Source: Rodentolepis nana
Lineage: Eukaryota > Platyhelminthes > Cestoda > Cyclophyllidea > Hymenolepididae
Assembly (NCBI GenBank): GCA_900617975.1
Contig: UZAE01012764.1
Span: 1-32,316, forward strand
Reading direction: 5' to 3'
Length of the DNA: 32,316 bases
Numbering within the stretch: the first letter of the stretch is position 1; each line of letters starts with the position of its first letter. Positions 2,004-29,840 of this stretch are shown here, in pieces. The position numbers and the translations under genes are program-made. The notes beneath the pieces were generated by a model that was given only the letters and a program-made list of their open reading frames with translations, was not told the origin of the DNA and searched no databases.

Positions 2004-2075
2004 GCGGTGTGGCATAGACTTACCTCCACATCGTGCACCCTGCACAACGTATACTCATTCCGCAGAAAAGTCTAT
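2004..2075 (+). ncRNA. HDV-like ribozyme, LINE copy (damaged)
   Basis: First 72 nt of the LINE. P2 is intact: ATAGACTT pairs with AAGTCTAT at 2068-2075. P1 is GCGGTGT against GCACCCT, with the G1-U wobble and one C-C mismatch. L3 is TCCACAT. P1.1 is weakened because GG has become GC, P3 has one mismatch, and the 3' strand of P4 is mutated (CGTAT against ATTCC). The order of segments is that of the nested double pseudoknot. G1 lies directly after the upstream target-site duplication, as expected for a retrotransposon whose RNA 5' end is made by self-cleavage. This copy is probably inactive. Confidence 0.72.
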
Positions 2076-2391
2076 CAAAAGGGCAGTTGACTTCAAACAA
2101 TTATGATCAGCCTGAAGCAAAACTCTACTAAGAGAAATTGCCCTTGTCAGGACGAATCGCAATTTCTACAGATCCTTCAGTGGAATGCTGAAGGAAAGTC
2201 AAAAGTCAAGAAGGTCCAAATCCAGAAAATCCTGCAAACCTGTGATATGGACATATTCACAACCATGAAAATAAACCTTACTGATGATAAACTCAAATAC
2301 TACTAATTTCCAAGTTACACCTTATATCTCCTACCTAAAGTAGAATATTGATTGGAGTAAAAGAAGGCCTCACATCACATTGTGAAATAAT

Positions 2392-2463
2392 GGGGTGGGC
2401 GATGGACTTACCTCCACGTGGTGCACCCTGGCAGCGTATACTCATAAGGCAAGGAAAGTCTAT
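2392..2463 (+). ncRNA. HDV-like ribozyme, S1 copy
   Basis: P1 is GGGGTGG against GCACCCT (six of seven pairs, including the G1-U wobble). P2 is ATGGACTT against AAGTCTAT, all eight positions pairing, one as G-U. P3 is ACC with GGT, L3 is TCCACGT, and P1.1 is CC with GG. The P4 stem is CGTAT with ATAAG (damaged). The candidate catalytic C is in GCAAGG. G1 is the first base after the target-site duplication. Confidence 0.8.
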
Positions 2464-2727
2464 AAACCGACATTTGACTTCTGACTTCTAACTACCATGA
2501 CCCCATCGTATGGCATATTCCACCACTTTCACAGTACTCATCTTACCTTTTTCTCTACCTTTGTGTCTGTCTGCCTCCTTTACATCTGTGAATCATTATT
2601 CTGTCCCTCTCTCGAGTTTTTGCCACTTTGATGTTCCTCCTCCTCTCTGCGAAGCCCGAAGTCAGCTAAAGTGCTAATGGTAATTATCAAAACGTCTGTC
2701 GTTTGAAATAAAAAAATAAAACATTTC
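2392..2727 (+). mobile_element. Short ribozyme-headed element S1, nested in LINE
   Basis: Complete 336-bp non-autonomous retroposon. Exact 8-bp duplications GAAATAAT lie at 2384-2391 and 2728-2735, and removing the insert rejoins the LINE endonuclease frame (SHCEII to KSMG). Order of parts: ribozyme head (2392-2463), leader with TTGACTTCTGACTTC, an ATG at the position matching the LINE start codon, a pyrimidine-rich body with CTTTGTGTCTGTCTG, and a 3' end of AAGCCCGAAGTCAGCTAA, CAAAACGTCTGTCGTTTGA and an A-rich tail. It has no long reading frame. Mobilisation by the LINE machinery is inferred from the shared 5' and 3' ends. Confidence 0.88.
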
Positions 2728-5153
2728 GAAATAATCAAGAGTATGGGCTCAATGGAGGACAAATGCTAAACAATCAGATTAAATGTTTGGAAAGGTCAAA
2801 ATCACTTCAAGATATACACTGTCTATAATCCACTCTAGGATATGCCCAACTTCGATCCCCTGAACATCTCACACAAAACTATAGTACTCGGAGAATTCAA
2901 CGTCCATTCCACCAGATGGACTATAAGAACAGGAGCACAGTCTGGAAGGAAGTCAAAGACATGCTTAACGGCAGCTCTCTAGAACTTATTTATTGCGATG
3001 AGGATCCTGCTACATACCTTTAATACAATGGAATCAGAACAACCTCTGACTTGCTCCTGGCTTTAAGCGACAACAGCGAGATTACACACAGAGAATAATT
3101 GACAATCCTGGTTCTGATCATAAACCAGTCATTGTTAGTGTTACTAGCAAACAACAAATGCATGACACCCAAAATGTCAATCAAGCTATCATGGAACTTC
3201 AAGAAGACCGACTGGTCTAGATTCACACACCTTTAAGAAAACGAACTACACGCGTGTCCCATCATTTGCAACCACCATCACGACAAACTGGGTAACAATA
3301 TCACCAGTATTATAATTAGATGTGCAAAGAAATCTATTCCCCGTGGCAAGGCTAAATATCATAGTGTTCTGATCTAAAAACCTTGAGGAACAGAAAAGAA
3401 GCGGGAAGCCCTTCACTACACTGCTGAACAGACTGAAAGAACGGAGGACGTGCAAGTCTGGAGATGGCAGTCAACTGTCCCAAGGCAAACCATCTTACAA
3501 GCCAAACGAACTACCTTCGAAAACTTCATCTCAACTATCAACTACTAAGATGATAGCTAAATCACATTTAAATTCCTGGATAACTTCCAAAACAACAAGA
3601 AAAGACCCCAAATGAGCCAATAAAATTCAACAATAAACTGATTACCACCGACTTCGAACTAGTTAACTACTTTGAGAGATTCTATTCGAATAAACAAAAG
3701 AAAAACTCATTTGTCAGAAACTCTTCAAGGGATATAAAGAAGCAAGTTTGGTGAAATTAAGGAAGACACAGCAATACCACACAATGTACTTACTGAACCA
3801 TTCAGCTTTAAGGGGCTAGTGAAAAATATCATAAATCCTGACATTTGAAATAAAAATAATAGGGGAGCACTTAGTTAAGTTTTCATTGGCTGCTTATTAG
3901 GGCGTCTTGGTAGTACTCGCTAGTCATCGGACACCGGATGGTTCTGCTTCAATGTAGATAGAAGTTTCTTGTAGCAGGAGCAGAACACGAACGGTTGGTT
4001 AAATAATATTGCCATTCTGATTGGTTGAGGAGATAATAAGGATAGATCTCTCTGACTCGTCAAAGCGACACCCCCTAATACCACATATCGCAAAATAACA
4101 ACGCATTAGTCCCATCGTTAAGAGGAATATGAAGAAATTTTTTTTAAGGGACTATAGTAAAGTACGAGTTGACAACTGGTTAGTATGAAAAATGGATGTC
4201 CAATTACCCAGGAAAGTTCTGCAAGCCTCAACTTGAACAGATCGCAAAGGCAGTGGGGATGTCAATTTAGGTAAGGGATTAACCAACGGACCCTCTAAGC
4301 GACACCTTATCTTGTGCCTCGTCTCTGTTCCTTTACTTCCTCAACACAAATTTGCACCAAATTCCCATTTTCCTATGTTTGATATACCGGTCGCTAAAGT
4401 TTTAACTGATTTCACTTATTATTAAGAAGTTATTATCATTTTTGGAACACCTGACATCTGCGCACTCAAATAAGGAAGGAAACTACCACCTTATCGAATT
4501 AATTAATAGGGGAGTTGTTGAGGAAGAATAGTTCAGTAGCCGGAAGGAGAAAATACCTGTTTGAATCGCTTAGTTCGATTCGGAGTATATATTTTCATCA
4601 AATCCCTGGTATAACTTTTTTGTCTTTTCTTTTTCGGTACAACGATCCAAATGAAAGTATAATTTGTATGATATGAAGAGACAAAAATAAGATGAATATC
4701 CCTGAGTGATTCATTTGGCCAAATCCTAATATAATCCCATATGTGTGGTTATTGTATTTTTTCAAAGTGACTTCAGAAAACCAACCATCCCTCCGAGAAA
4801 AACATTTTATCTTAAAAAGTAAAACACGAAGTAGCCATAATGCGCACTACAAAACAAAATAAAGTCACTTTTAATTAAAGAAACATAACTAACCACGTGC
4901 TAGGAGAGGAATCTCCCTGATTAATTCTAATATAAGGCCAATGCAAAGTTAATTTAACTTCTTATTTTATTTTTCACGATTCTATGATTTAAGTAATTCG
5001 TGACTTCTGATGACCTAAAATTACATGCCCACCTCCTGGTGAATCTCTTTTCCATTTTATACGTTATTGAATGCGATTGGTACCGGCATTTACTCACATA
5101 TTTGATCATTATCAAAACCTGTGAATATCTTATGGTAATGACAGCAAAAACAA

Positions 5154-5173
5154 CAATAATAATAATAATAATA
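5154..5173. repeat. (AAT)n microsatellite
   Basis: Six to seven AAT trinucleotides. No target-site duplication or retroposon 3' end was found next to it, so I treat it as a plain microsatellite and not as a LINE tail. Confidence 0.85.
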
Positions 5174-8100
5174 GAGAATGGGCGTTCCTAATAACAGCCT
5201 TGAGAGCACTATTCTGTTTTCCACAGAGCCAAGTTTTAAAGTTTATTTAAATTATATAGTAGATATTTCTTAAAAGCCCATCACTCCGTTCGCAACATGA
5301 GGTATTGCCAAAAACACCAAGTTTTACTTAATCTCTCAAACAAGCCATCTCTCTTCAAATTGTCTGTTATGTGGGTTTCTTTTTCTCTGTCTCTTTAGCG
5401 AATCATTTCCAAACAGTGCAAAATGTGCGCCAATAGAGTAACTTCCTGTTTAAAATGGCTTTTCACTCTTACGCCTCCCCCCTTTATTTAAATAGTCCAT
5501 ACCTACTAAGTCCACCATACTTGTCACTAATTTATTAATAGGTACTTATAGTAGTATCTATTGGAGGAAGGTATCTTCCACTTTAACTGAGTTTATCTAC
5601 TAATAATTCGCTTAATAAAGCTGTCTGTATTCCATAACTAAATAGTACAATGAGCAGTAAGTTGCTCCAAGCAATTAATGATGCACATATATTATGCAAT
5701 TAGAAGTCGCCTCTCAGAGCTTATCTTCTAAAAATATGTACTTTTAATTATCCTTATTAGGCACGTAGTGCAAAGGAGAGTTATGATGGAGGGAACTTAA
5801 CTGGAGACCAAAAGTGGAGCACATCCACACCACTAAAATAGAATTATATTTTTATGCGGAAAAATCTAAAATTAGATATCAAAATGAATTAAAATTCGTG
5901 TTAACTTGCAAAGAGACACCTTAAAGGAACGAATGTTTAAACGGGTTATGAACTACTTCAATGATTGGTTGTTGTTGTCAAATAAAGAGGCAGCTTGCAC
6001 AATAAATTGATTGACAATTTTTAAAACAATAAAAGACCGATTAGATCTCGAGGGCAAAGTGTGAATGAATTAAAATGGTTTTGAAGAGCAGTACTGTGTT
6101 ATTTAAATTTTTAAAAAGGAAATAAAGCTAACTATGTTTGTTCATTGGAATGCATCTACGGTCGGACATCGCGGAAGGAGTAAGAAGATTCTGAATGGAT
6201 AAAAATTGAAGATATAATCATGTCATTGAATGAAAGCCATCAACTTAATTTCTAATTATCGTGAATTTGTAGCCGTCGCTTAATGCTCTTTGGTTTCAAC
6301 GTTGGTATTTGTTAGATTTGAACTTAGTATTTATGAGTGACTTTACGTCCTACTGATCTGATCCTAATTGAATATTTGTTTCAACGGAATGACTGGTGGC
6401 AATTTTTCTGCAAATTCCAGCATTTATTCAATGTCATCACATTTTAAGGTATTTGAAAGAAAATTATACCAAATGCTTTGGCAACCACTAAGGTGCATAG
6501 AATACGTTATTAGCACTGCTCTTATTGTCAAATGGTGAATTTTCACTAACTACTTGTGTGACTATTGATTGACATCAGATAATCAACTACGATTAACACA
6601 ACTCGATCTGGGTATTACACCTCAGCACCCGTAAGCTCTACACCGGCGATTTATAGTTGTTCTGTTCATTTTTACAAAAATGATGTATTGGCATGTTTTC
6701 ATTTCCCGTTAAACTTATTATGGCCATTTATATTCATCGCCAGCTGAGATGATCGATTTTCTGAGTTTATCGTGAACCAATAATAGCAAAATTAATATCA
6801 TAATCATAAACCGAATTAATTAAAACCTAACATTGCGGATTAATGTTTCATCAATTGTTGTGTGCCACGAATAATTTCGGTATCTTTTATTTAAATAAGC
6901 CTAGGCATTTGAATTCCTTCATTTCTGAAACGCATCAAATTTTAAACCGCCGTAAATAAATCAGTAACTGACCCCGTTAAAAGCTGTCTCTTTGCTAAGA
7001 AACGGGAAAACCATATTATTGTGAAACGCCGATGAAACACTTCAAAAGAGGAGGAGTTACACTACCCTGTGTTCCAAGGTTAGGATTTAATAAATAAGAT
7101 GTAAAAACGAAAATAAAAAGACTTTTAACTTATTTGAGAATCCAATAACGCATTGTCTCTCAGAAGAATTTACTAAAAAAGAGATGTTCTCTTAACCATT
7201 AAACACTTATCCTAAGTTATTCCTTATAGCTAATGTGTGCTATGTTAATAAGCAAATGGCAAAATTTATATTAAACAATGACATAATTATTAGCATCTTG
7301 ATGTACCAAAATTTTAGATGAAAGTGTGCGAAAGCGTTAATTAAATTCTGATTGTCACATCCTTACTCCTGTGATTGCTTCAAACTGATACTCAACGTTC
7401 AATGGCCGATCGATGAAAACACTTAATTTTCATCCAATCTAGGCAATATGATGAATGTGAGATGTTTATTGAAAAAATATTATGGATCTTGATACACTTT
7501 ATAATAAAAAATTAATGTCTTTTTCTTTTAATATTTCACTACAAACTTTGTAGAACTAACTAATTAATCAAAGCTAATTTTTTGCTCAAAACGTTGGGTT
7601 CAAGGAATTTGTGATTGACTCATATAGAACTGCTCATGGTAACAATTTATGTCAATAAGCGACTGGTTGTGAACAATTTTGTAAAGATTTCACTTTGGAA
7701 ATTTCGATGGGTATAAATTAGCTATAAGGAAGGACAGTGGTACAAATGAAGTGTTTCCATTTCATTAACTTATTTGTAAAAATATATTAAGAGATTAAAA
7801 AAGCAAATCAATTTTGTATATTTAAATATAGATCGGATGCTTAAATGAAAAACAAACAAAAAACAACCCTAATTCTCTAACTTTTGATGTGTTCATTTTC
7901 TGATCCATTCTGTGTCAACTATTAAACCAGTAAAGCCCGAATTGTGTTCTACTTAATTTCACTAATGTAAGGTACTTTTTATTTTTAGAATAACTTATCT
8001 GTTTGCCTCAAGTATGCAGTCAAACTTAATGCAATAAATAAATAATTTATAGAAGAAATTTTGCAAGTCTACCCGTATTCGTGGAAAGAATTTGAGTCTG

Positions 8101-8345
8101 GTTTCCGGAGATGAGACTGCGAAGGATTGTAGAATGCTCACAATGGAGAGGTTACTATAGAAATTGGAACGCTTCCTGCATAATAAAGCCTCCAATGGTA
8201 CTAAAATAGACTCACAGCCCGAACCGACTGAAATTCACTTTTCTGAGTTATCATGGGTAATTCTAAGGAAATCCTGAAAATCACTTGATTTCTAGATTCT
8301 TTATTTCATTTGAATAAAAAGTAACGGAGAAATATGATTTCATTT

Positions 8346-8394
8346 GGGAGGGAGATAGGGGTGGGGTGGGGTGGGGGGGGGGTGTGGGAATGGG
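8346..8394 (+). repeat. G-rich tract, possible G-quadruplex
   Basis: Successive G runs (GGGAGGGAGATAGGGG, then GTGGGGTGGGGT, then a run of ten G at 8373-8382, then GTGTGGGAATGGG). At least four runs of three or more G within 50 bases meet the usual sequence criterion for a G-quadruplex. There is no link to a gene. Confidence 0.8.
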
Positions 8395-9101
8395 AGAAAA
8401 GGAATTGAAAAAGATAATTATTTGGTTTCAGGAGATTCACAATTCAATTGCACGCAAGTTCAAGAAAAAAAAAAGAAAATGGAACTTTGAATGAATAGTG
8501 GTTTGCTGATTTTGAATTTGCATGTTGTCAATGTAAATTTAAATTTCTTTATTTTGCACGGGGGTTTAATTTTATAATTGAGCAAATAAGGGAATTAATT
8601 TAATTTGACACATTTAAACAAAATGGAATGCATAGTGTTAAGATTTTTTCTAACTTCGGATTGCGTTGAGGCAAACTCAGTTTCCCTAACTATTGTTAAA
8701 GTAATGGGGTGCAAGAAAAACCTCAAAGCTGGTAAATGTTAGGGATATACACAAATGTTTACTAATAGATTATATTGATAGTTTTTGAAATTGGTTTCTG
8801 TAAGGAGTTAAATTAAACAATTCATGACATTTTAAACTCAAACCATTTGCTATCATTTGGCTAATATCTTGGCTAAGGAAGATAAATTACATGTGCTAGT
8901 AACATCCGTATCCGGTAAAAATGACTTCAGTCAGAAATTTAGGCAAAAAATCTTGAATAATGGAATCTAAAACAAATTCACTTTTAACGAACAATTACAT
9001 TGTCTGAATTTAGGTAATAAATTGAATAGACATTTTTGATGCTCACCATTATATTATTACTCAGATCTGTGAGGAACACAACTTTGGCATGGCGAAACTA
9101 G

Positions 9102-9178
9102 AGGTCTCCTGACCAATCAGTGGCTCAAGTCATTCCGTGGTTGTCATGCGAGAAGGTGTATATTATGACTAAGTTCCC
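9102..9178 (+). repeat. Dispersed repeat with CCAAT and TATA-like boxes, copy 1
   Basis: About 75 bp that align with 12526-12603 at roughly 70% by eye. Shared blocks are ACCAATCA, CAAGTCATT, CGTGGTT, TCAT and GTGTATAT-ATGAC. CCAAT at 9113-9117 and the TATA-like TATATTA at 9159-9165 sit about 46 bases apart, and the conserved TCATTCCGTGG between them resembles an ATF/CREB-type site. It may be the promoter part of an old mobile element or LTR. Promoter function is inference only. Confidence 0.5.
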
Positions 9179-10447: not shown

Positions 10448-10741
10448 TTTTATTTATTTTTATCAAATGGCAGGCGTTTTGATAGTTATCATTAGCATTT
10501 TAGTTGAAATCAGGATTCAACTAGGGGAAGGAACATCAAAGTGAAAAAAGTCGAGAGGGGGGGTGAAGAGAAGAAAAGAGACAGACATAAAGGTAGAAAA
10601 AGGTGAGGTGAGTACTGTGAAAGTGGTCGAATATGACATATAGTTGGGTTGATGGTAGTTTGAAGTCAGAAGTCAGACTTTTGCGAATGAGTATACGCTG
10701 CCAAGGGTGCACCACGTGGAGGTAAGTCTATCGAGCACCCC
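10448..10741 (-). mobile_element. Short ribozyme-headed element S2 (minus strand)
   Basis: Near-complete copy of the short retroposon in reverse orientation. On plus it starts with the tail TTTTATTTATTTTTATC, followed by AAATGGCAGGCGTTTTGAT, and it ends at the ribozyme head. It keeps the diagnostic 3' block (rc TCAAAACGCCTGCCATTTGA), the body (GTGAGTACTGTGAAAGTGGTCG on plus, in pieces) and the leader. A run of seven G at 10557-10563 lies at the same place in the element where S3 and S9 carry long homopolymers. No convincing target-site duplication was found, perhaps because of decay. Confidence 0.85.
10673..10741 (-). ncRNA. HDV-like ribozyme, S2 copy
   Basis: Read on minus, P1 is GGGGTGC against GCACCCT, seven pairs including the G1-U wobble, making it the best P1 in the window. 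P2 is ATAGACTT against AAGTCTGA (six pairs). P3 is ACC with GGT, L3 is TCCACGT, and P1.1 is CC with GG after one extra T. P4 is CGTAT with ATTCG (one mismatch). The candidate catalytic C is in GCAAA. Confidence 0.8.
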
Positions 10742-15221: not shown

Positions 15222-15238
15222 GTTAAAGCAAATATTAT

Positions 15239-15551
15239 TATTATATCCAATGGCAGCCGTTTTGATGGTTATCATTAGCCCTTTAGTTGACTACAGGCTT
15301 CACAGAGGGGATGAATATCAAAGTGGAAAAATCGAGAAGGTGGGGGGGGGGGGGCCGAAGGGTATTTCAAAGACGAAGGCAGATAAGGTGGAAAAAAGGT
15401 TAGGTGAGTTCTGTGGAAGTAGTCGAATATGACACAGTGGAGTCATGATAGTTTGAAGTCAGAAGTCAACTTCCAGGTAATAGACTGTTTTGCCGTATGA
15501 GTATACGTTGCCCATGGTGCACCACGTAGAGGTAAGTCTATTACACACCCC
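15239..15551 (-). mobile_element. Short ribozyme-headed element S3 (minus strand)
   Basis: Full-length copy in reverse orientation. The flanks carry TAAAGCAAATATTAT at 15224-15238 and 15554-15568, exact over 15 bases. Extending two bases to 15222 and 15552 gives 16 of 17 matches and places the element 5' end at 15551. The tail is a short ATT repeat, not TAAA. The 3' block (rc CTAATGATAACCATCAAAAC), the pyrimidine body, the leader with the conserved ATG and the ribozyme head are all present. A run of 13 G (15342-15354 on plus) has expanded inside the body. Confidence 0.9.
15480..15551 (-). ncRNA. HDV-like ribozyme, S3 copy
   Basis: Read on minus, P1 is GGGGTGT against GCACCAT (one mismatch, G1-U kept). 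P2 is ATAGACTT with CAGTCTAT (seven pairs). P3 is ACC with GGT. L3 is TCTACGT, so P1.1 is CT with GG. P4 is perfect, CGTAT-ACTC-ATACG, followed by GCAAAA with the candidate catalytic C. G1 at 15551 abuts the target-site duplication. Confidence 0.8.
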
Positions 15552-15568
15552 GCTAAAGCAAATATTAT

Positions 15569-16119: not shown

Positions 16120-16430
16120 TATATATTTATTTATAGCGAATGGCACGCATTATGATAGTTATCATTAGCTCTTTAGCTGACTTCGAGGTCCACAGAGGGA
16201 AGGGAAATCATCGTTAAAAATGTCGAGAGGGGGAACAGAAGAGAGAATCACAGATGCGGGAGAAACAGATGCAAATGTAGAGAAAAAGGTAAGGTGAGGT
16301 AAGTACTGTAAAGTTGTCGAATCAATGTAGTTTGAAGTCAGAAGTCAACTTCCGGTTTATGGACGTCTTTACCGCGGGGTTAAACGTTGCCCAGGGTGTA
16401 CCACGTGGAGGTAAGTCATTCGCGCATCCC
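16120..16430 (-). mobile_element. Short ribozyme-headed element S4 (minus strand)
   Basis: Near-complete copy in reverse orientation. The TAAA-type tail appears on plus as TATTTATTTATAG, followed by GCGAATGGCACGCATTATGAT. Body and leader are readable, but the leader has lost several bases around the start codon (AATCAATGTAGTTTGAAGTC on plus). The head is eroded. A possible ATTATT duplication (16114-16119 and 16431-16436) is too short and AT-rich to trust. It seems older than S1 or S3. Confidence 0.82.
16359..16430 (-). ncRNA. HDV-like ribozyme remnant, S4 copy
   Basis: Read on minus, P3 (ACC with GGT), L3 TCCACGT, P1.1 (CC with GG) and most of P1' (ACACCCT) remain. The 5' strand of P1 (GGGATGC), P2 (AATGACTT) and the P4 stem are mutated. 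It is recognisable by homology and would not be expected to cleave. Confidence 0.6.
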
Positions 16431-17483: not shown

Positions 17484-17674
17484 GTCTCACATTACCCTTT
17501 CTATGCCTTTGTGTCTGTCTGTCTGTCTCTTTTACCTCTGTGAATCATTCTTCGGTTCCTCCCTTTCGACTTTTCCTCACTTCGATGTTAATCCCCCCCC
17601 CTTCTGTGAAGCCTGAAGTCAACTAAAGGGCTAATGTTGACTATCAAAACGCCTGCCATTTGATATTAATAAAT
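17484..17674 (+). mobile_element. Short element S5, 5'-truncated
   Basis: The 3' part of the short retroposon, starting within the pyrimidine body (CTTTGTGTCTGTCTGTCTGT) and running through TGTGAAGCCTGAAGTCAACT, AAAGGGCTAATG, TCAAAACGCCTGCCATTTGA and a short TATTAATAAA tail. The ribozyme head and leader are missing. Such truncation is typical of incomplete reverse transcription. A C-run (17588-17597 region) lies close to the end of the body. No clear duplication was found. Confidence 0.85.
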
Positions 17675-18628
17675 TGTTCATGTTAGTATGAAAAATACAA
17701 AATGTATTTCTAAAAAGACACCTAAGATTGGGACATGGTGATAAAGCTCATTTTAAAGTGAAGAAGAGGGTGTCGAGTCGAAATTGAGAAGATTCAAAAG
17801 TTGGTGTTCAATTGATTTCCTGATTCATCGATCTCATTTGATGTCCAAGCGCTAGTTAAGTCGTTCGCTTTACTTAAACCACAGTAGGTAACGTGAGCTA
17901 TTACCTCTTTCCCAAGAGTTTTAGAATATTACTTTCTCCCTAAAATCTCACATAATATTTCGAAGTTAGTCGTTTTTTCCAGCAATCGCTCATTGATCTC
18001 CTGTGCACCAACTTTGCTGATTGACGAAATCGTTCAAAGCAACTGAAACGGTTTTACTTAAAAGAAGCAAACGCCTGCCATTTGAAATAAATAAATAAAT
18101 AAACTTCTGGAAAGCATCTAGTGCAACATCCTCAGATTTTCTTGCTGCCTTCTTAACTTCTTCTCATAATATTCCTGTTATTTCTTTAGAAGTAAATACT
18201 TCAAATTTTGGTTTTTTATGGTAGAGATCAAATTCAACCATGACATTACCGATCAGGAACTAAAGTTTTGAGTTCATATTAATGTACCGTCTCTAAATTG
18301 TCCATTTAACGTCGTCCATGTCTTTATCAAAAGATAAAATACCTATTTTCATTTTAATAAAAAGCTAGGAGTTAATATGGTACATTGCAATCCTCTTTAG
18401 GTCACGCTGACGATACAAGTGATACTCGTGACTTTAATAATGATGGAGAAAAAATGAATTCTCAATTATCTCAAACCGGTTAAAATGAAAATATTTAAAA
18501 GTATATCAGTATTATAAAATTTACTTGATATTATCACCGGTAATTGATTCTTTTGACCTTTTGAAATAAATAAATAATATTGGTTTATTCTTTCAATTAT
18601 TCTTTCAATGAGAACATTTTATTAGCCA
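17675..18628. other. Unassigned DNA between S5 and mariner
   Basis: Apart from the tail fragment S6 at 18069-18104, nothing recognisable is present. TTTTGAAATAAATAAATAAT near 18559-18579 resembles the short-element tail, but without the CGCCTGCC block it cannot be assigned. Confidence 0.6.
18069..18104 (+). mobile_element. Short element S6, tail-only fragment
   Basis: Only the last part of the element remains: AAACGCCTGCCATTTGA followed by (AATA)n. This is either an extreme 5' truncation during reverse transcription or a deletion remnant. The 14-bp CGCCTGCCATTTGA match is the diagnostic 3' block of the family. Confidence 0.7.
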
Positions 18629-18647
18629 ATATATATATATATATATA

Positions 18648-18677
18648 TTAGGTTGGCAACTAAGTCATTGTCGATTT
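18648..18677 (-). repeat. Mariner 3' terminal inverted repeat
   Basis: TTAGGTTGGCAACTAAGT and the following bases match the terminal repeat typical of irritans-type mariners. The partner repeat at the 5' end is not found near 19640, so the pair needed for transposase-mediated excision is broken. Confidence 0.85.
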
Positions 18678-18721
18678 CAAATAAGAAGGCAAATTCGGAA
18701 TTTTTGTTTAAAAATATAACT

Positions 18722-19638
18722 TTATTCAATTAGATATTGGCCGTTCTTGTCGATGACCTTTTTTCATCGTTCTGGCAGAGTAAAAATTCCCCGTTCGTAA
18801 AATGTCTGGTCTTTGCTATTAAAAAACTGAATTAGGTGTGATCCGACATCATCCGCGTTGTTAAAAATTTTACCATCTAAAGAGTTTTGCATGAAACGAA
18901 ACAAATGGTAATCTGAAGGCGCAAGGTCAGGGCTATATGGTGGGTGTGACAAAACATCCCAACTCAGTTCCAATAATTTTTGCCGAGTAACCAAAGATGT
19001 GTAGAGCCTTGCGTTATCATGATGGAAAACAACACCCTTCCGATTTGATAATGTTGTTCAACATACACATTTGAATTTATCGTTTGGTTCTGCGGCATGA
19101 GTTCAAAATACAAAATTCCTTTGTGATCCCACCAGACTGACAGCATAATCTTTTTTGGTGAATCTCTGCTTTTGATACTGTTTGGGCTGGTTGATCTTGC
19201 TTCACCCATGATCTCTTGCGAGTAACATTGTTATAAACTATCCACTTTTCGTCGCCAGTAACTAGGTTCTTCAGAAATGGATCATTCTCATTCTCATTGC
19301 GTTTCAGTAGCGGCGAATCACAGATGCTAATCCGTTGCATCAAATGAATTTCCTTTAACTGGTGAGGGATCCATAAATCAAGTTTCTTGACATAACCAAG
19401 GGGTTTTAATTTTTTTTCAAAGCATGTATGCGACACATTGAGCTTCTCTGCAATATCTCGTGTTGTGCTGTGACGATTTGAATCGATAACGGCCTTGATA
19501 TGGGTTTCATCCACTTCGACTGGGCGGCCAGATCGTTGTGAATTTTTCAGTGAAAAATCACCGGAACGAAATCTTTCAAACCAATTTCGACACTGCCTTT
19601 CTTTTAAGGCTTCATCTCCATATACGGCACATAACTTT

Positions 19639-19640
<2 letters not shown>
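18722..19640 (-). pseudogene. Mariner transposase pseudogene
   Basis: DDD-type transposase remnant. It starts at KLCAVYGDEALKERQCRNW, lacking the usual first residues. SLKNSQRSGRPVEVDETHIKA and the helix-turn-helix part TTRDIAEKLNVSH follow, then GYVKKLDLWIPHQL in place of the usual WVPHEL. The first catalytic Asp is in TGDEKW. A frameshift after KAEIHQK moves the reading to KIMLSVWWDHKGILYFEL. After YVEQ, some 16-20 codons are deleted and the frame changes. The second Asp is in VVFHHDNARLYTS, and the third in PPYSPDLAPSDYHLF, with D34D-type spacing. Near the end the Trp codon expected after LPER is TGA, then KKVIDKNGQYLIE and the normal stop at 18722-18724 follow. NENEND near residue 70 of the remnant is a 6-bp duplication. 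No functional protein is possible. Confidence 0.92.

Positions 19641-19671
<31 letters not shown>
19641..19671. repeat. (TA)n microsatellite at mariner's broken end
   Basis: About 15 TA units directly at the breakpoint of the mariner. A shorter (TA)n run at 18629-18647 abuts the intact end. Mariner inserts at TA, so the simplest reading is insertion into a (TA)n array followed by loss of the 5' end. Confidence 0.9.
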
Positions 19672-19674
<3 letters not shown>

Positions 19675-20141: not shown

Positions 20142-20153
20142 ATATGCACACTC

Positions 20154-20225
20154 GGGGTTCGCGATACACTTGCCTTCACATGGAGCACGCTGGACAATGT
20201 ATACTCATACGGCAAAAATGTCCAC
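20154..20225 (+). ncRNA. HDV-like ribozyme remnant, S7 copy
   Basis: G1 lies directly after the duplication. P1 is GGGGTTC against GCACGCT with two mismatches, P3 is GCC with GGA, L3 is TTCACAT, and P1.1 is partly lost. P4 is TGTAT-ACTC-ATACG (still pairs, with one wobble), followed by GCAAAAA. P2 is eroded (ATACACTT against TGTCCAC). It is homologous, probably inactive. Confidence 0.65.
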
Positions 20226-20470
20226 AAACCGCCAGTTGATTTCTCACTTCCAACTATCATGACCTCCCTGTATTACGTTTTCCACCACTTCCACAGTACT
20301 CACCTTTACTTTTAATTCCACCTTTGTGTCAGTCTCTTTACATCTGTAAATCACTCTTCTGTTAGAACTCCCGACTTTGCATGACTTTAATGTTCCCTCC
20401 TCTGTGAAGCCCGAAGTCAACTAAAAAGCCAGTGACAACAGTTATAAAGCCTTCTATTTGATATAAATAA
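20154..20470 (+). mobile_element. Short ribozyme-headed element S7
   Basis: Full-length 317-bp copy. Duplications ATATGCACACTC (20142-20153) and ATATGCATACTC (20471-20482) agree at 11 of 12 bases. Head, leader (CAGTTGATTTCTCACTTCC), conserved ATG, body with CCACCTTTGTGTCAGTCTC, 3' block (GAAGCCCGAAGTCAACTAAA, GCCTTCTATTTGATATAA) and tail are all present. After the ATG a 17-codon frame runs to a stop. It is not shared by the other copies. Confidence 0.9.
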
Positions 20471-21156
20471 ATATGCATACTCTAGTTCACTTAACAGCTT
20501 TGCCTATGGTGGACGTAGAACTTAAATGTCTATAACGGGGAAGGGATTGTGATGTTCTTAATCTTACTTCTTGATCAAAATGAGCAGCACTCATTATTGT
20601 TGCTCAAACGTTAACTGAAACTACCGGATTCACTCTGACTTCTCTGTAAGTCTGAAAGTTGTATTGGAGCCTATTAAAATCCATTCCAAGTTCTCAATTC
20701 GGAATAGAGGTGAATTCTTATAATACATTACTCAAGTTAGCAGAGGCTTCCTTGCCACAATCAAGGCTATAAACTAGATTGTCGATAGCCATTGTCTAGT
20801 AGTTCTCATCTCGATCTGCACTAATATATCAGATTTCATCCGGTGCCATGACAGCACCAGCCATTTTTCAGTAAATAATGAATGTCAATATATATCTGGC
20901 CTCCCCGGCACTGGTAAATACCCAATTGTAGGAATCCGCTCTAAGTAGGAACTTCAGAAAAGCATTATCACTCTCTTTTTCAATGTATTCATGAGTATTG
21001 TATTTGTTTTCCTGTTGTAAAGTGCACATTAATGCGTGTTGATAATGTCCCCTGTACCTGCATTCTCACTTCCCGTTGTCACTTAATGCGGATTTGTGTC
21101 AACACTCTAAAATATTCGATCTTTTTTGGATGATTTTCTGAAAAGAAAAGCTCTCA

Positions 21157-21179
21157 GTAATAATAATAATAATAATAAT
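21157..21179. repeat. (TAA)n microsatellite
   Basis: Seven TAA units, without an adjacent retroposon 3' block. Confidence 0.85.
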
Positions 21180-23159: not shown

Positions 23160-23353
23160 ATGTGTAGCGGATTGCTACTTTATTAAAGCCTGACTGACTC
23201 AGAAATCTTTATGGCAGATCCTCCTGCATCTAGCTAGACTCCCAGAATCAGCTAAGCTATAGCCCAGCTATAAAGGAAACAGACGTGTAGCACGGAGCAC
23301 GCTTATTCAGTACGGGTATTGCGGATAAAGTGTACGCGCAGGGAGCTACACAT
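23160..23353. repeat. Possible small inverted-repeat element
   Basis: ATGTGTAGC at 23160-23168 and its exact complement GCTACACAT at 23345-23353 bound 194 bp that are clearly richer in G+C than the surroundings and contain internal CTAGCTAGACT and AGCTATAGCCCAGCTATA motifs. The arrangement resembles a miniature inverted-repeat transposable element. No target-site duplication is visible and the repeat is only 9 bp, so chance cannot be excluded. Confidence 0.3.
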
Positions 23354-24401
23354 GATCAGGATGGGGGATTAGGTTAAACAGAGGTTGATGATTGGTCACT
23401 CTCTGCACGGTCGCTGCACACAGAGTTGTGCGGCCGCACCTCCCAATCCTGGCGAGCAGACATGCAGGCATACGATGACGCACAGAGCGATAACGTGTCC
23501 CACATATGCTTAGGTTGAGTTATTTGAGGAAACCTCCATGCCATTAGGATAATTGACTGGAATTCAAAATCCAGATTTTTTCCCATTGGAATATATAGGA
23601 TTTTGATCATTTACACTCATTAAAATTTTATATAATAAATGAAGAATCCGAAAGTTGTTTAAACCATGTGTATAAACGTCCTTTATTACCATTAAATGAT
23701 TGGTTTTGTGTTACTTTTCAGCATAGATCTTTCTACTTGTAGTACCACGAACAATCCTCAAATGATAGCTACTCAAAAGTGATATCTTTTGAGCTTGGTT
23801 TTTCCTCAACTTTCTGTTCTTGATCTGATCCATTTCACTCATACCATCAACCTCCTTCCCTCCCCCGTCCTCTTGTAAATCTCCCATCCAAATCTCGCGT
23901 TTTTTGATCAGTGTTCAGTGATCATAGCAGATATTAACAAGTAAAGCTCATTTGAACAGCCATGTACGCTCTTATGAATTTCAGTTTATAGTTTTGATAA
24001 TATAACTATTAGAATTTTTTTGTAACGTCCACAACAAATAACACTATGCATNTGGTTAAACTAACTAACTACTATTTTGGCCATTTTAAATCAGAAATAA
24101 ATAAACTATGATATTGTTGTTTACGTCACGCTGTTTTTTTAACATATTTTTCAACCTCTCCTGCTTTCTACCGACATTCGGGTTAACCAATCTCAGTTGG
24201 GGACACAATTTTCAAACTCTTTCATTTCTGCAGTACTCTGAAACCCATTAATATTTACTTTCAGATGGCCTAAATGTAGAAAGTGGTAAATTATATGTAG
24301 ATGTATTTAATGAAACTCAATTCTATTTTGCGGTGTTAAGGTATTCAATAGAAATCGCTTATCTGAAGGCTTTCAATTAACTTGCCATTAGTTGTCCGGA
24401 T

Positions 24402-24473
24402 GGAGTGTACGATAGACCAACCTCCAGGTGGTGCACCCTGGACAACGTATACTCAAACGGCAAAAAGGTCTGT
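24402..24473 (+). ncRNA. HDV-like ribozyme, S8 copy with covarying P2
   Basis: P1 is GGAGTGT against GCACCCT (one mismatch, G1-U kept). P2 is ATAGACC against GGTCTGT: compared with the family consensus, a U-A pair has become C-G by changes on both strands, so pairing is preserved. P3 is ACC with GGT, L3 is TCCAGGT, P1.1 is CC with GG. P4 is CGTAT-ACTC-AAACG (one mismatch), then GCAAAAA. G1 follows the duplication directly. Confidence 0.82.
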
Positions 24474-24734
24474 TAACTGGCAGTTGACTTCTCACTTCAA
24501 ACTACTATGACCCCAATGTATGTCATATTCGACCCCTTCACAGTATTCATCTTACCTTTTCTCTGCCTTTGTGTCTGTCTCTTTTACATCTTTGAAACAC
24601 TCTTCTGTTCCTTCTCCCTCGACTTTAATGTTCCTTCCCCTCTGTGAAACCTGAAGTCAACTAAAGGAAATCAAAGCGCCTGCCATTTGATATAATAATA
24701 AAAATGATCATCAAAACGCCTACCATCTGATATA
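24402..24734 (+). mobile_element. Short ribozyme-headed element S8, doubled tail
   Basis: Full-length copy. Duplications AGTTGTCCGGAT (24390-24401) and AGTTATCCGGAT (24735-24746) agree at 11 of 12 bases. Head, leader (GGCAGTTGACTTCTCACTTC), ATG, body and 3' block are present. The 3' end is doubled: TCAAAGCGCCTGCCATTTGA with an AATAATAAAA tail is followed by a second ATCATCAAAACGCCTACCAT with CTGATATA, both inside one duplication pair. A 46-codon frame from the ATG is open here but is not maintained in other copies. Confidence 0.9.
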
Positions 24735-24746
24735 AGTTATCCGGAT

Positions 24747-27700
24747 TTGTTGTACTTTGTTTAAAGTGGAGTTCAAAGTTCACTTATTTCAAAATCATTT
24801 TCCTTCTTACTTTGCATGGCAATAAAAATATTCTATTCTTAAAGAATAGGGTGCGAATGTATTAACAACGCAAAGTAAATAGGCAGATTCAATTATGAAA
24901 TCTGAATGAGATTTTATACTCATAATTCATAATTTGAGTCATACACTAAGTGTTGTATATTGAAATTTATGGGCTCAATACTTGAATATTTGGGCAATAA
25001 TATTTGATGATGAAAATTAAATCAAGCGCTGTGTATAGCCTATTTTATTTATGGTTGTTTGGCAAAATAAAAGTCAATCAATTTTTACAGACAGAAGTAA
25101 TTAATAAACAAGTAAAAATTACCTTTTAACCCATTGATTACAAAAATCTAGTACCTCAAAGTTAAGCAAAAATATTTTATTAACATAAATGTAATCGATT
25201 TACATTTCTTTAATAGCTTTTGCATAGTTTTTTTGTCTCCTCTACTTGTAACATTGTCAGGTATTTATTTTATTTTAAAAAATATTACTAATTTAATCTT
25301 CTTAGGTTTCACAGCGTTAATAAAGTCCTTTTGTTATTAGGCATTCTTAATTTTGGTTATTTTTACAGATAAAAATGGGTGAATTTGATCGACTCCGTAT
25401 TGATTAAAAAATTGATAAATGGCAGTATGCAGTAAACAATAACATAATTTCTGTTGAGCCGAAAGTAAAGTGTGAGGAGAGTGCGGTTGTCATCTTGATA
25501 TCCATAAAGTTTTATTTGTTTAAGTATCATACCAGTCCTCTTGCATAGAATTTAGATTTCAAGTGTATGGAAAATATGTGCAAAAGATATCGAATTTTAT
25601 TTGCTTTAAGCAAGTTCGTACTTTACACATCTTTGCGTATCAGTCTGCTGGAATAATAAATTATGGCATAGATTTTTCACCGACATGGAGTTGGAATATG
25701 GTACAATTTACATTTTAAATAGAGGATTCAAACTGTGTCCAATAATTGAGCATCAAGACGAGTTTGGCTAGTGTGAACTGAAAATTGCCAGGCCCACAAA
25801 ACTATCAACTCCACTTCAATAGCCTATTTGCATATTATCCTATACATAATTCTTCTTTCATTCACAGCGCGTTCTCCAAAATGAAATAAATTATACATTA
25901 AAAGGCCTATTTGAATTCTACCTACCCCCCCCCCCCCNCCCCCCCCCCCTCCCCCACCCAACCCAACCCCCCCACTCTCCCCTACCGCCCCCTCCCTCGT
26001 ACTTGAACCGCTCTGTTCTTATATCTTTACAACATTGCACTTTCGAATATATGCAGATCAAGTTAAATGACGGAAAGAAAAATTTGGAATTCTATTGGAA
26101 TAATTGAAGAATCGTCTAATTTATTTAATTATTTCACGGACCGGAACAGTATGAAAATTACTGTATAAAAGAATTTGGAGGGGTTCATGGGGGAAGGAGT
26201 GATGTGTGGGGAGGGGGAGTTGGGCTTGAAAAATAACGTTTATCCCAATGCCGAATGGCGGAGCAATGCATTGGTGTGTTGCTAGTCCGGTCCCAGCAAA
26301 CACGCAAGGCATCGCGGTCACCTTTGGAAAGAATTAATATGGATTTAGTTAAGGCTAGAAAACCCGCTATTCACATAAAGGTTGACCTTCACATAATTTC
26401 TTTTCCAAATTATTTCCTAAAATAGGATATCAAATACGACAATATAATTAATTGTCCATTCAATAAATTGAACAAATAGTAATGGTTGTAAGGGATTCAG
26501 TTAATTACAATTTAAGATTAAGATAGTCCAAATTCGGCCCAAGGGATTTTTATGCAGCCAAATAAATCGATTATAAGCTTAATATTTTTAAAAAATATAT
26601 TTTTAATTATTTCATTTAAACTCAAATGTTTTTAAGACAAATATGATTATACACAGCCTAACCATTTATTTACTTCATGTTAAATTTTCATCCAAATTAT
26701 CGTAATATTTACTTTTAATTTTATCTAAAATGAAAGAGATTTCATGTTTTAAATGACTTTAATTATGGCAATTTTACCGAAGAAAATGATTTAAAATCAT
26801 GTGTAGGTGAATCTGTGCATGCACCCTTTAGACGTGTCAATTGGCATTTTCATGATAAGTAATTTAATTTGATAAAATATTTGTCGGGTGTAATTAACTT
26901 GTATATTTTAATGAAAGAATAATTTTATTACCTTTTTTAATAAATTTTTGGACTGAAATCGCTGTCTATTTGGACTATTAATTTTTACTATTGATTAATC
27001 CCTATTTTTTGAGTTGCTGAGAACCGCGCATCATTTTGAGATCAAAATGTTGATAGATCGCTCGTCGGCTAACATGGAAACAATATCAGTTAAATTCCCT
27101 CAATTTGCTTTAGTTTGTTCTGCTCATGCCACAAGTCGGATTCTACTCCATTTGCTTTTTTATTATTCGTACTGTTTTCTTTTTTCTCACTCACAGTGCA
27201 TAACGGTAGCTGCACGCACATTTTTTTCCAAGCATCGGTTTGACCAACAATTTTGGCAAAAATTGTTGAAACCTGTCAATTTTGTAAAGAGATAACACCA
27301 ATTCCAATATCCGGGCTCATAAAGTAGCGTTGCTAAGGGAGCGATAGCTCTTTGAAATTACTAAATTTGAAACTAGAGACATTTGACTGGTTTTAAAATT
27401 TATTTATTTAAGTAAGCATGCGAAAATGGAATTTTGAAAGTACCCAATATTTCACCTCATGAATATTCGTAAAATTTCTGAGGTATTTTCAAAATGTAAT
27501 TTCACTTGTGAACAACTCTCATTTTTGACAAATAGAGTTGAGTAACAGTAATTGTCTTTATAAAGAGATTCCCAAAGCTTATTTAACTTAAGATATTGTT
27601 TTAGGATGGTAAAAGAATGTCAACAGCTATGGTTGGATAAAATTATATGCGACAGATGTCGAATGACATGAAAAAAGACAGCAAAGGACCAAATAAGGTT

Positions 27701-29756
27701 AACAACTTAATGAAAAGTAATAAAAAGTATAATTAAAGGAATATAAAATGCAGCTTTGAAATGATGTTCCAGCGAAGGAAGCTGTGAGGAGGAAAGCAGC
27801 TAGACTGTAGGAACTTGTGGAAGAAGTTGAAGAGTGAAGGAATCGGAAACTCCTTAAAATATCGATTTTAGGTTATTGATGCAGTTCCCAAGGTCAAGTG
27901 CTTAGAAAATTATAAATGGATTAGTATTTCAGCTTAAAGAAGCTTGCACAGAAATCGAAAAATAATTTAGAATTTTGAATATGGACATCTAAACTATTTT
28001 AAAATGTTAATCTCGATAAACCAAACTTTGACCTATCATATGCACAAATTTAATTTCGGATTTCATTAGTAGAAGTTTGGATTTTGCTTAAGCAAATTTA
28101 AATTTGACTTTTCCCCTATTTATTTTTACCTTTATCATTCTTTAAGATAAGACCATTATTTTAAAACTTATTATACAGTAGGTTAAAAAAAGATTTCTAC
28201 CTCAAATCGGCCATGTTGGACACTAATCTTTGCTACAATCATCTCATACAGTAGGAATAAAAATCCCCACTGAGAAACGTAATTTTAGACGTCCGTTTTG
28301 AATCAAATAAAATTCCCCTTGAACTTAGAGTTTAAATCATTAGTATATTATTAATATTTTACCAAAACTACCTTTCGCAACCAAAACTGGGAAAAGATAA
28401 TATTGGCATTCTTAGCTGAATTTAAAAGTTAAAATAAAATCGATAAGGTTATTTTTATCTATTGATTATAGTGAGAACTGATCTTCCTTACAGAAGTTTT
28501 GATTTCTTGTGATTTTAAATTTATGAAAATGTAAATCTACTATTTTTAAAGCGATTCGCTGACATCATGCGATTCGATGTCAATGAAAATCGTTTGTCAA
28601 CGAGTGTATTAAAGTTAATTTTTACACGACATCTTATATAAAATCCCTTCCACGTTTCGTTATCTCTCATTTCTAATAATCATTTCTAAATTTAAAATGT
28701 GGTAGTTGTGTAGGCTAAAATTATTGCAAATATTTTCTTCCAATCTCGTTAACCAATCTTGAATTCGAGATATTTTTGTGAAAGTATACATTCAGAAGCG
28801 CAAAAAAAATTGGACCAGTTGTTTCCTCAGCCAATTTTTTCCGCCTCGCACGCCTTCCAGACGATTTGCACCAGCACATCTTGAAAATGACCTTCATAAA
28901 ATTGCTTGTGTCAATTTTATTAAATAACAAGATGGGCAAAGTAAAAGTTCTCTTGGCAAACTCAATAGGATACACAAAAAATGCATTTCTGTTTAGTTGG
29001 TCTGTAAAGTAGTTGAACGGGAAACTACAGAGGTAAAAAGCTTGAGAATATCTCATTATGAGGAAGCAGCAAAACCCATGGGAACTGTCGAGCGGAAATG
29101 TGAATCAGTGCAACTCTACCTCAACTGTGCTTAATGATAATCAGATCAAAATTCTGTTGAAATCCCAATTTCTTCAAATGCGTTCTTTCTACTCATAATT
29201 TTCGTTGTATAGTTTTACGTAACAAGTTTTTTATATGAATTTAAAGCTATCTTATATTCAACTACTTTTGTTGGCACTCATCGTCCGCCTACAGAAATCT
29301 AACAATTTCAGATTGCATTTAGCATTGAGGTAATCCAACCGGTAGGGTTTAATAATCTTGCTTTTGAATGCGAGATCGGGGGTCAATGACATCGTTGAAT
29401 CAATGCGTATAATTCTTTTTTACATCCATTTCCGTGGAAGTAAATGTTCAGCAGTGCGGGGGGTATAATTTATTGTGTGACGCGTTTCGATTTTTGATAG
29501 CATAAAACCTGTCATAGCCTATTCCTTCAAAGCTCAGATCGTGATGAGCATAATTTTGATTACAACGGACCTTTCCTCGTGTCCAATCTTCACAATTTGT
29601 ACCTGCCCACAGATTTACTCTGTGACTTTAGAATTTTACACCAAGTTTACTTGAAGGATCCTTGTCTGTATCCGCTTATAAATTCATTTATCACCTGCTG
29701 TAAAAGTCTAGTGCCGTATTTTGAGTAGTTTTCCGCACAGTCTTCAATTCATTATT
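24747..29756. other. Unassigned DNA between S8 and S9
   Basis: Five kilobases without a supportable gene. A C-rich tract with an ambiguous base lies at 25921-25998. Frames of 93 codons (27014-27295 plus) and 111 codons (28721-29056 minus) are the longest. They have no recognisable motifs, no visible initiator context and are near chance expectation for this base composition. Confidence 0.6.
25921..25998. repeat. C-rich tract containing an ambiguous base
   Basis: A run of C interrupted by N at 25938, followed by CCCACCCAACCCAACCC-type units and CCCCTCCCTC. The N probably marks a homopolymer that sequencing could not resolve, so the true length is uncertain. Confidence 0.9.
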
Positions 29757-29770
29757 ATCTTCAGACAACC

Positions 29771-29840
29771 GGATGTGTGATAGACTTGCCTCCAAGTGGT
29801 GTACCCTGGGTAACGTATACTCATACGCCAAAAAGTCTAT
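29771..29840 (+). ncRNA. HDV-like ribozyme, S9 copy
   Basis: P2 is a perfect eight pairs (ATAGACTT with AAGTCTAT). P3 is GCC with GGT, L3 is TCCAAGT, P1.1 is CC with GG, and P4 is perfect (CGTAT-ACTC-ATACG). The candidate catalytic C is in GCCAAAA. P1 is damaged (GGATGTG against GTACCCT). G1 follows the extended duplication directly. Confidence 0.72.

What the first reader, a model, noticed from the sequence alone, without database searches (positions are those of the whole stretch)
2004..29840. A family of retroposons headed by an HDV-like self-cleaving ribozyme
Eight elements (LINE, S1, S2, S3, S4, S7, S8, S9) start with the same ~70-nt block. Its segments occur in the exact order of an HDV-like double pseudoknot: P1 GGGGUGY, P2 AUAGACUU, P3 ACC, L3 UCCACGU, P3' GGU, P1' GCACCCU, then GG (P1.1 with the CC of L3), ACAA, P4 CGUAU-ACUC-AUACG, J4/2 GCAAA with a candidate catalytic C, P2' AAGUCUAU. 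P1 has seven pairs with the first a G-U wobble, as in known members. HDV-like ribozymes are known at the 5' ends of R2, RTE and trypanosome L1Tc-type elements. This host and this jockey/CR1-like family with a short derivative may be undescribed. Seen: the pairings. Inferred: cleavage activity.
Basis: partly seen in the sequence, partly recalled or inferred. Interest (0 to 1): 0.96.

Follow-up and report, generated by a model that had tools for sequence, protein, structure and literature searches.

The report
Tapeworm retroposons with self-cutting RNA heads
The genome of the dwarf tapeworm holds thousands of copies of a jumping gene and a short derivative whose RNA starts with a sequence that is predicted to fold into an HDV-like self-cutting ribozyme, which likely trims the RNA to its exact first base before it is copied into a new place.

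Summary
Confirmed and extended. All eight elements start with the same ~72-nt block. Its consensus forms 25 of 25 pairs of an HDV-like double pseudoknot, with a C at the catalytic position of J4/2. Rfam's HDV-F-prausnitzii model, run genome-wide, gave 59 matches at E<=0.001 among 61 places scored (37 over the curated cut-off; 0 of 14 prokaryotic control genomes). The 20 best all lie at the head of this element. The host is Rodentolepis (Hymenolepis) nana. An exact 19-nt core of the block occurs 7,030 times in 107 Mb.

The LINE encodes an APE-type endonuclease, RT and RNase H, with its AUG ~100 nt in. The SINE joins the LINE's first ~97 nt and last ~80 nt around ~140 unrelated nt. In 100 copies conservation begins abruptly at G1. 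48 of 72 SINEs have target-site duplications; 28 of these abut G1 exactly. Between SINE and LINE the ribozyme differs at 5 of 72 positions, the next stretch at 20 of 43.

Not shown: cleavage, and covariation among copies (none beyond shuffles; every window copy is damaged). The arrangement matches R2, L1Tc and their internally deleted derivatives: a new member of a known kind, in a new host, at high copy number.

The parts
2004..3861 (+). LINE copy, decayed, missing the RT part; interrupted by S1 (2392-2727)
   Evidence: head aligned; endonuclease pieces translated; relatives; 3' tail 3809-3861 matches the SINE tail
2004..2075 (+). LINE ribozyme head, 20/25 pairs
2103..2391 (+). start of LINE ORF (AUG ~100 nt from G1), APE endonuclease N-terminal part with one stop
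   Evidence: sequence
2736..3808 (+). LINE ORF remnants (endonuclease C-terminal part and following, frameshifted)
3809..3861 (+). LINE 3' tail homologous to the SINE tail
   Evidence: (D6)
2384..2391 (+). target-site duplication of S1, 5' copy (GAAATAAT), abuts G1; 3' copy at 2728-2735
   Evidence: score 8; sequence
2392..2727 (+). S1, full-length SINE inserted in the LINE; ribozyme 2392-2463, 22/25 pairs
10458..10741 (-). S2, SINE; ribozyme head from 10741 down, P2' partly lost, 20/25 pairs; no TSD found
15231..15551 (-). S3, SINE, best preserved copy of the window; 15-nt TSD ending 2 nt before G1
15480..15551 (-). S3 ribozyme, 23/25 pairs, Rfam RF02682 40.3 bits, E 2.7e-4 (cut-off 44)
16121..16430 (-). 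S4, SINE; ribozyme head from 16430 down, 18/25 pairs, J4/2 C is T; no TSD found
20154..20466 (+). S7, SINE; ribozyme 20154-20225, 18/25 pairs; TSD 20142-20153 (one mismatch) abuts G1
   Evidence: (score 8)
24402..24701 (+). S8, SINE; ribozyme 24402-24473, 22/25 pairs, RF02682 27.2 bits; TSD 24390-24401 (one mismatch) abuts G1
   Evidence: (score 8)
29770..30038 (+). S9, SINE; ribozyme 29770-29840, 22/25 pairs; TSD 29757-29767 ends 2 nt before the head
17578..17672 (+). 5'-truncated SINE (3' part only)
18069..18090 (+). SINE tail fragment
32283..32316 (-). SINE tail, rest beyond the window end

Best explanation
This is a LINE and its short non-autonomous derivative in the tapeworm Rodentolepis nana, both headed by a 72-nt sequence predicted to be an HDV-like ribozyme that would cut transcripts just before the element's first G. 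Shown: the shared head, the abrupt start of conservation at G1, target-site duplications that abut G1, the shared 3' tail, and the LINE's endonuclease, RT and RNase H domains. Inferred: (1) the element is transcribed from host or nearby promoters; (2) the double pseudoknot forms and cleaves, leaving a 5'-OH RNA that begins at G1; (3) the LINE protein binds the common 3' tail of LINE and SINE RNA and copies it by target-primed reverse transcription; (4) the cDNA ends at G1, so full-length copies keep the ribozyme and can repeat the cycle from any transcribed site without a promoter of their own.
For: Structure: the consensus has 25/25 pairs in P1, P2, P3, P1.1 and P4 and a C in J4/2. RF02682 over its cut-off: 6 of 22 RF02682 matches in 20 fetched loci and 37 of 61 scored places genome-wide, 0 of 14 controls, all prokaryotes. 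The 20 best places, fetched, are all this head followed by the tail motif. Descriptor: 47 hits in 620,592 bases (both strands counted, some loci overlap), all 47 with the element's core motif, and 0 of 20,000 dinucleotide shuffles. 5' end: mean information 0.20 (SINE, n=72) and 0.24 (LINE, n=28) bits per column for -30..-1, against 1.58 and 1.71 for 1..60. TSDs: 48 of 72 SINEs against 10 of 355 mismatched pairs; 28 of 48 end exactly at G1 and 37 within 1 nt, while no control hit lies within 5 nt. Constraint: SINE and LINE 5' consensus (46 and 27 copies) agree at 67/72 ribozyme positions and 23/43 just after P2' (Fisher p 1.1e-6). LINE/SINE partnership: SINE 1-97 and ~240-321 match the LINE's ends. 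Domains. Copy number: 7,030 exact 19-nt cores, reversed control 0.
Against: No cleavage data exist. Covariation among 80 distinct copies does not exceed shuffles (2 double changes against a mean of 1.6; 93.3% of cells paired against 93.3%), and changes break P1/P2 pairs more often than they keep them (70 against 50 cells). The pseudoknot-free fold is no better than shuffles (z -0.14). None of the eight window copies keeps all pairs. 5 of 83 aligned heads lack the J4/2 C. Majority LINE heads have a U-U mismatch at the P4 closing pair. 11 of the 20 best RF02682 places carry C at position 18, which breaks the innermost P2 pair. 24 of 72 SINEs showed no TSD by the score used, and 11 of the 48 TSDs end 2-6 nt before G1. 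A promoter with a fixed start at G1 would also give exact 5' ends. Only this one genome was available.
Confidence: 0.86

Rival explanations
1. The block is an internal promoter whose transcription start is G1, as Pr77 of trypanosomatids also is; exact 5' ends come from the start site and the fold is secondary or unused.
For: It explains exact 5' ends and TSDs at G1. The Pr77 sequence of trypanosomatid elements is described as both internal promoter and ribozyme (PMC4035085, background section read). No transcript data are available here.
Against: A promoter needs no P1/P2/P3/P1.1/P4 topology, no RF02682 match and no conservation that stops at the 3' end of P2'. No tRNA, 5S or 7SL match was found in 20 loci. 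The two functions are compatible.
Confidence: 0.08
2. The ribozyme was active in the ancestor but the amplified lineage kept the fold only as a structure for RT binding or jumping, without cleavage.
For: Many copies carry damage in P1-P4 or J4/2.
Against: Several copies match the consensus over all 72 ribozyme positions (L011, L019, L026 twice, L027, L030), and the lineage-level differences spare P1, P2, P3 and P1.1. Damage is what dead copies accumulate.
Confidence: 0.05
3. Chance resemblance of an ordinary SINE head to an HDV-like pseudoknot.
For: Nested folding energy is unremarkable.
Against: 0 of 20,000 shuffles satisfy the descriptor; Rfam cut-off passed at 37 places.
Confidence: 0.01

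Closest known systems
L1Tc/ingi LINEs and NARTc/RIME of trypanosomatids (Pr77 HDV-like ribozyme; PMC4035085, abstract and background section read)
   Same: 5'-terminal HDV-like ribozyme shared by a LINE with APE endonuclease, RT and RNase H and by short truncated derivatives
   Different: Animal host. RT clade relation not tested. Promoter activity of the head unknown here. The trypanosomatid ribozymes are reported active in the majority; these were not tested
R2 and R2 SIDEs of Drosophila (PMC3414825 and PMC3774820, passages read)
   Same: 5' HDV-like ribozyme; SIDE made of LINE 5' ribozyme, an unrelated centre and the LINE 3' end
   Different: R2 inserts into 28S rDNA, relies on rRNA co-transcription and has (recalled) a restriction-like endonuclease. 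This LINE has an APE-type endonuclease and dispersed sites. R2 SIDEs are described as rare; here an exact core occurs thousands of times
R4/Dong, RTE and Baggins ribozymes (named in PMC3774820 passages; the 2011 study by Ruminski et al. seen only as a reference, not held)
   Same: Cleavage at the 5' end of a non-LTR element
   Different: Other LINE lineages; sequences not compared here
HDV-F-prausnitzii ribozyme (Rfam RF02682)
   Same: P1 7 bp, ACC-UCYACGU-GGU P3/L3, GGCAACG after P1', GGC in J4/2 (alignments)
   Different: Bacterial; P2, J1/2 and P1 sequence differ; 16 of 22 RF02682 matches in 20 loci score below its cut-off
Non-LTR retrozymes (PMC7761336, passages read)
   Same: Non-autonomous retroelement carrying a small self-cleaving ribozyme
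   Different: Those use hammerheads, are expressed as RNA circles and are thought to depend on Penelope-like elements; hammerheads did not appear in the Rfam scans, RNA circles could not be looked for

Membership tests
HDV-like self-cleaving ribozymes | Nested double pseudoknot P1, P2, P3, P1.1, P4 in fixed order | tested here: met
   consensus 25/25 pairs; 0 of 20,000 shuffles
HDV-like self-cleaving ribozymes | Catalytic C in J4/2 | tested here: met
   C60 in 98% of 46 SINE heads; 78 of 83 aligned heads; six of eight window heads
HDV-like self-cleaving ribozymes | Match to a curated family model over its cut-off | tested here: met
   RF02682: 37 of 61 scored places, 6 of 22 matches in 20 loci; RF00094 only below its cut-off (4 matches); the two window matches are below it
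HDV-like self-cleaving ribozymes | Covariation in helices | tested here: inconclusive
   no excess over shuffles among dead copies
HDV-like self-cleaving ribozymes | Mg2+-dependent cleavage 5' of G1, lost on change of the C | not testable with these tools
   needs transcripts
Non-LTR retrotransposon (LINE), APE type | Endonuclease and RT domains | tested here: met
   PF14529/PF03372 (L069), PF00078 (L002) over cut-offs
Non-LTR retrotransposon (LINE), APE type | TSD-flanked insertion with a 3' repeat tail | tested here: met
   48 of 72 SINEs with TSD; AATAA-type tails. LINE TSDs not tested
L1Tc/ingi clade | RNase H downstream of RT | tested here: met
   PF00075 in L079; RT and RNase H reading frames in order on one locus
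L1Tc/ingi clade | RT phylogeny within the clade | not tested
   no labelled reference sequences at hand
R2 clade | Restriction-like endonuclease and 28S rDNA target | tested here: not met
   APE-type endonuclease, unrelated flanks
Short internally deleted element (SIDE) | 5' and 3' ends of a LINE, coding part absent | tested here: met
   SINE 1-97 and ~240-321 match the LINE, middle does not except a 16-nt C-rich stretch
tRNA/5S/7SL-headed SINE | Small-RNA-gene head | tested here: not met
   Rfam scan of 20 loci found only HDV families at E<=0.1

The most novel reading that the evidence does not exclude
The LINE reverse transcriptase hops in steps of about 40 nt between different ribozyme-headed RNAs, and has written mosaic arrays into the genome in which dozens of differing head fragments follow one another (L110, L111, L112). 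The compact ribozyme fold, met by the enzyme from its 3' side, would be one of the stall points. The arrays would then be a genomic record of RT template hopping on folded RNA.
Probability: 0.2. Interest if true: 0.75.

Novelty: new member of a known kind. Interest (0 to 1): 0.62.

Why it matters
The searches listed in the report showed no paper on an HDV-like ribozyme in a tapeworm. If active, the family would make one tapeworm genome a rich store of HDV-like ribozymes: 7,030 exact core copies in 107 Mb, some of them in fragment arrays (no counts from other animal genomes were compared here). It repeats in a flatworm the arrangement of trypanosomatid L1Tc with NARTc/RIME and of Drosophila R2 with its SIDEs: a self-cutting head plus a LINE tail would be enough to make a successful parasite of a LINE. 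Thousands of natural variants with exact insertion ends would let one test how ribozyme strength relates to transposition success, and whether sense copies in host transcripts cut them. SL trans-splicing in tapeworms (H. microstoma, PMC7653826, passages read) raises the further question of how an uncapped LINE RNA is translated.

Tried and rejected
Covariation among genomic copies as proof of structure: tried, no excess over shuffles; not used as support. Nested MFE folding: uninformative. Relatives in viral contigs by one exact DNA pattern and by one RT protein: none. SSU rRNA search for host identity: not completed; the host was identified instead by an R. nana protein whose contig length (89,128) equals that of G000:C2222. 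PDB search of the short L070 endonuclease ORF: no match. Pfam on the same ORF: 0 families; the longer L069 ORF matched. Model R1 could not be run on the genome and was not used further. Ruminski 2011 is not held.

Rows left out: 61 used 83 of the 91 heads; dropped were one duplicate (L073) and seven truncated, tandem or degenerate heads (two in L058, one each in L057, L043, L033, L045, and window S2). One search used 73 of the 91 (score >=60, clear SINE tail or LINE ORF start). One search used heads of score >=45 plus the 20, kept those with 30 nt upstream and a recognisable SINE tail or LINE ORF, duplicates removed: 72 SINE and 28 LINE.
Full report
OBSERVATION. Two pieces of the block with up to 3 mismatches hit 7 places each and 0 of 100 shuffles; the eighth place is seen as a member of repeat family D3. 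All eight window copies are damaged: 18 to 23 of 25 pairs. An Rfam scan of the window at E<=1 gave four matches, none over its family's cut-off: RF02682 (HDV-F-prausnitzii) at S3, 40.3 bits, E 2.7e-4, and at S8, 27.2 bits, E 0.29, against a cut-off of 44; and two weak matches of unrelated families elsewhere.

HOST. The window is contig C2958 of a 107.1-Mb assembly. Of the relatives of its LINE protein that bear a species name, most are from Rodentolepis nana and Hymenolepis microstoma. R. nana protein P0039 lies on a 89,128-bp contig. It matches C2222 in two neighbouring pieces, 99% over residues 1-234 and 95% over 213-454, and C2222 is 89,128 bp long. I take the genome to be R. nana (Cestoda).

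GENOME-WIDE COPIES. A 199-nt query gave 4,285 first-look candidates; the 40 scored all matched, the window's own S3 among them. The exact 19-nt core ACCTCCACGTGGTGCACCC occurs 7,030 times, reversed control 0. Of the 100 places listed, 26 start within 100 nt of another (my count), so single heads are fewer. RF02682 searched over the genome scored 61 of 25,212 first-look candidates: 59 matched at E<=0.001, 37 over the cut-off, and 0 of 14 control genomes (prokaryotes) matched. I fetched the 20 best: all 20 are this head, followed within 276-420 nt by the common tail motif (up to 4 errors allowed). In 20 loci chosen from earlier searches, cmscan gave 26 matches at E<=0.1, all of them HDV families: 22 of RF02682, six of these over its cut-off, and four weak RF00094 matches.

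STRUCTURE. Consensus (1-72): P1 1-7/32-38 with G1-U38; P2 11-18/65-72; P3 19-21/29-31; P1.1 C23-G40 and C24-G39; P4 45-49/54-58; C60 in J4/2 (25 of 25 pairs). A descriptor of this topology gave 47 hits in 620,592 bases (both strands counted, some loci overlap), all 47 with the element's core motif and 27 of them at a head of the list, and 0 of 20,000 dinucleotide shuffles of the consensus. Among 83 aligned heads (80 distinct; 8 of 91 dropped) 93.3% of cells pair, against 29-52% when the partners are slid; but there is no covariation beyond shuffles, and changes in P1 and P2 break pairs in 70 cells and keep them in 50. I read this as decay of dead copies from few source sequences. It neither proves nor refutes the structure. 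5 of the 83 heads lack C60. The nested-only fold is unremarkable (z -0.14).

CONSTRAINT BETWEEN LINEAGES. A consensus of 46 SINE and of 27 LINE heads agrees at 67 of 72 ribozyme positions and at 23 of the next 43 (Fisher p 1.1e-6). The five differences are position 7 (U or C, both pair with G32), 41 (between P1.1 and P4), 50 and 51 (loop of P4) and 54 (closing pair of P4, U-U in the majority LINE form). Conservation thus stops where P2' stops. Against this, 11 of the 20 best RF02682 places carry C18, which breaks the innermost P2 pair; that sample is biased, as the model itself has C there.

EXACT 5' ENDS. In 72 SINE and 28 LINE copies mean column information is 0.20 and 0.24 bits over -30..-1, and 1.58 and 1.71 bits over 1..60. 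TSDs (score >=9) are found in 48 of 72 SINEs against 10 of 355 mismatched pairs. They end at G1 exactly in 28, within 1 nt in 37, and 2-6 nt upstream in 11; no control match lies within 5 nt. In the window S1, S7 and S8 have TSDs that abut G1, S3 and S9 have TSDs that end 2 nt before, and S2 and S4 show none (S1, S7 and S8 score 8 there, below the cut-off used for the counts). The 5' end of the copied RNA is therefore, in most copies with a TSD, the predicted cleavage site. A fixed transcription start would give the same ends, so this does not by itself prove cleavage.

THE LINE AND ITS SINE. Of 30 loci fetched with the LINE's endonuclease start (the window's own included), 28 carry the block upstream by an automatic search (not L041 and L059; L059 has a partial block by eye; L051, L057 and L058 have extra partial blocks). 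The ORF begins about 100 nt from G1 and opens with an APE-type endonuclease (PF14529, PF03372); RT (PF00078) and RNase H (PF00075) follow, each matched on a different copy and seen in that order on single loci. No ORF1 lies between head and endonuclease in the copies read. RT copies number at least 150 (159 matches; 150 of 778 candidates scored). The LINE 3' UTR ends in a tail that the SINE shares. By blastn, SINE positions 1-97 and about 240-321 match LINE ends, while the middle matches only stretches that I take to be other SINEs in the same loci, and a 16-nt C-rich run. This is the anatomy of an internally deleted element such as R2Dwi_SIDE, whose centre also has no match (PMC3414825, passages).

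MECHANISM. Shown: anatomy, exact ends, TSDs, shared tail. Inferred: read-through transcription, self-cleavage at G1, recognition of the tail by the LINE protein, target-primed reverse transcription ending at G1. Nothing here tests transcription or cleavage.

WHAT IS KNOWN. HDV-like ribozymes sit at the 5' ends of R2, R4/Dong, RTE, Baggins and L1Tc (PMC3774820, passages). Short derivatives with the ribozyme are known in Drosophila (PMC3414825) and trypanosomatids (PMC4035085, abstract and background). A 2020 review lists R2 and other LINEs (PMC7761336, passages). A search for 'Hymenolepis' with 'ribozyme' found 0 papers. The lists of searches (23 of 23 papers; 25 of 169; 4 of 4; 15 of 308; 15 of 172; 15 of 16; 8 of 11; 10 of 2,271) showed none on tapeworm HDV-like ribozymes in titles or abstract starts; most lists were cut, and subscription papers are largely missing from that library. 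The H. microstoma genome paper reports TEs at about 23% of the assembly, with a large unclassified share (PMC7653826, passages), and a 2019 paper calls information on tapeworm transposons scarce (PMC6880638, passages). I therefore call this a new member of a known kind.

SIDE OBSERVATION. Some loci hold arrays of head fragments of about 40 nt that differ from one another, all in one orientation; in the main run of L112 each steps back 37-49 nt with changing breakpoints, and in L110 pieces of about 80 nt occur as well (L110, L111, L112). C26 and C12 share the start of one array, and C26 and C20 share an inner series. 4 of 74 SINE copies show inner step-backs (sizes 34, 39, 40, 41, 42, 53, 86); L097, with two of them, is flanked by what reads by eye as a TSD. 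RT template hopping, DNA-level duplication and assembly error are all open.

Noticed in passing
L110 (C26:46800-50000), L111 (C12:64700-65454), L112 (C20:53200-54500), LINE 5' ends L051, L057, L058: Mosaic arrays of ~40-nt, mutually different fragments of the SINE/LINE head in one orientation, with step-backs of about 37-49 nt (L112) at varying breakpoints; one L110 piece begins with a telomere-like TAACCCTAAC.
   Followed up: partly
L097, L109, L024, L033: Single SINE copies with internal step-back duplications, 4 of 7 of them 39-42 nt (4 of 74 copies).
   Followed up: partly
window 18650-19660: Mariner-like transposase remnant on the minus strand flanked by AT repeats (recognised by eye, no search run).
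   Followed up: no
L101: Head continues with LINE-type sequence after the ribozyme and ends in a LINE-type tail within ~380 nt: possibly a second, independent short internally deleted derivative.
   Followed up: no
P0030, P0035: Spider proteins (Caerostris, Araneus) match the tapeworm LINE RT at 54% and 45% identity over 30% and 38% of the query; horizontal transfer or an old wide clade, not tested.
   Followed up: no
L091, L096-L099, L101, L103-L106, L109: SINE heads with C at ribozyme position 18 (11 of the 20), which would allow a longer P3 (C18-G32) at the cost of one P2 and one P1 pair.
   Followed up: no
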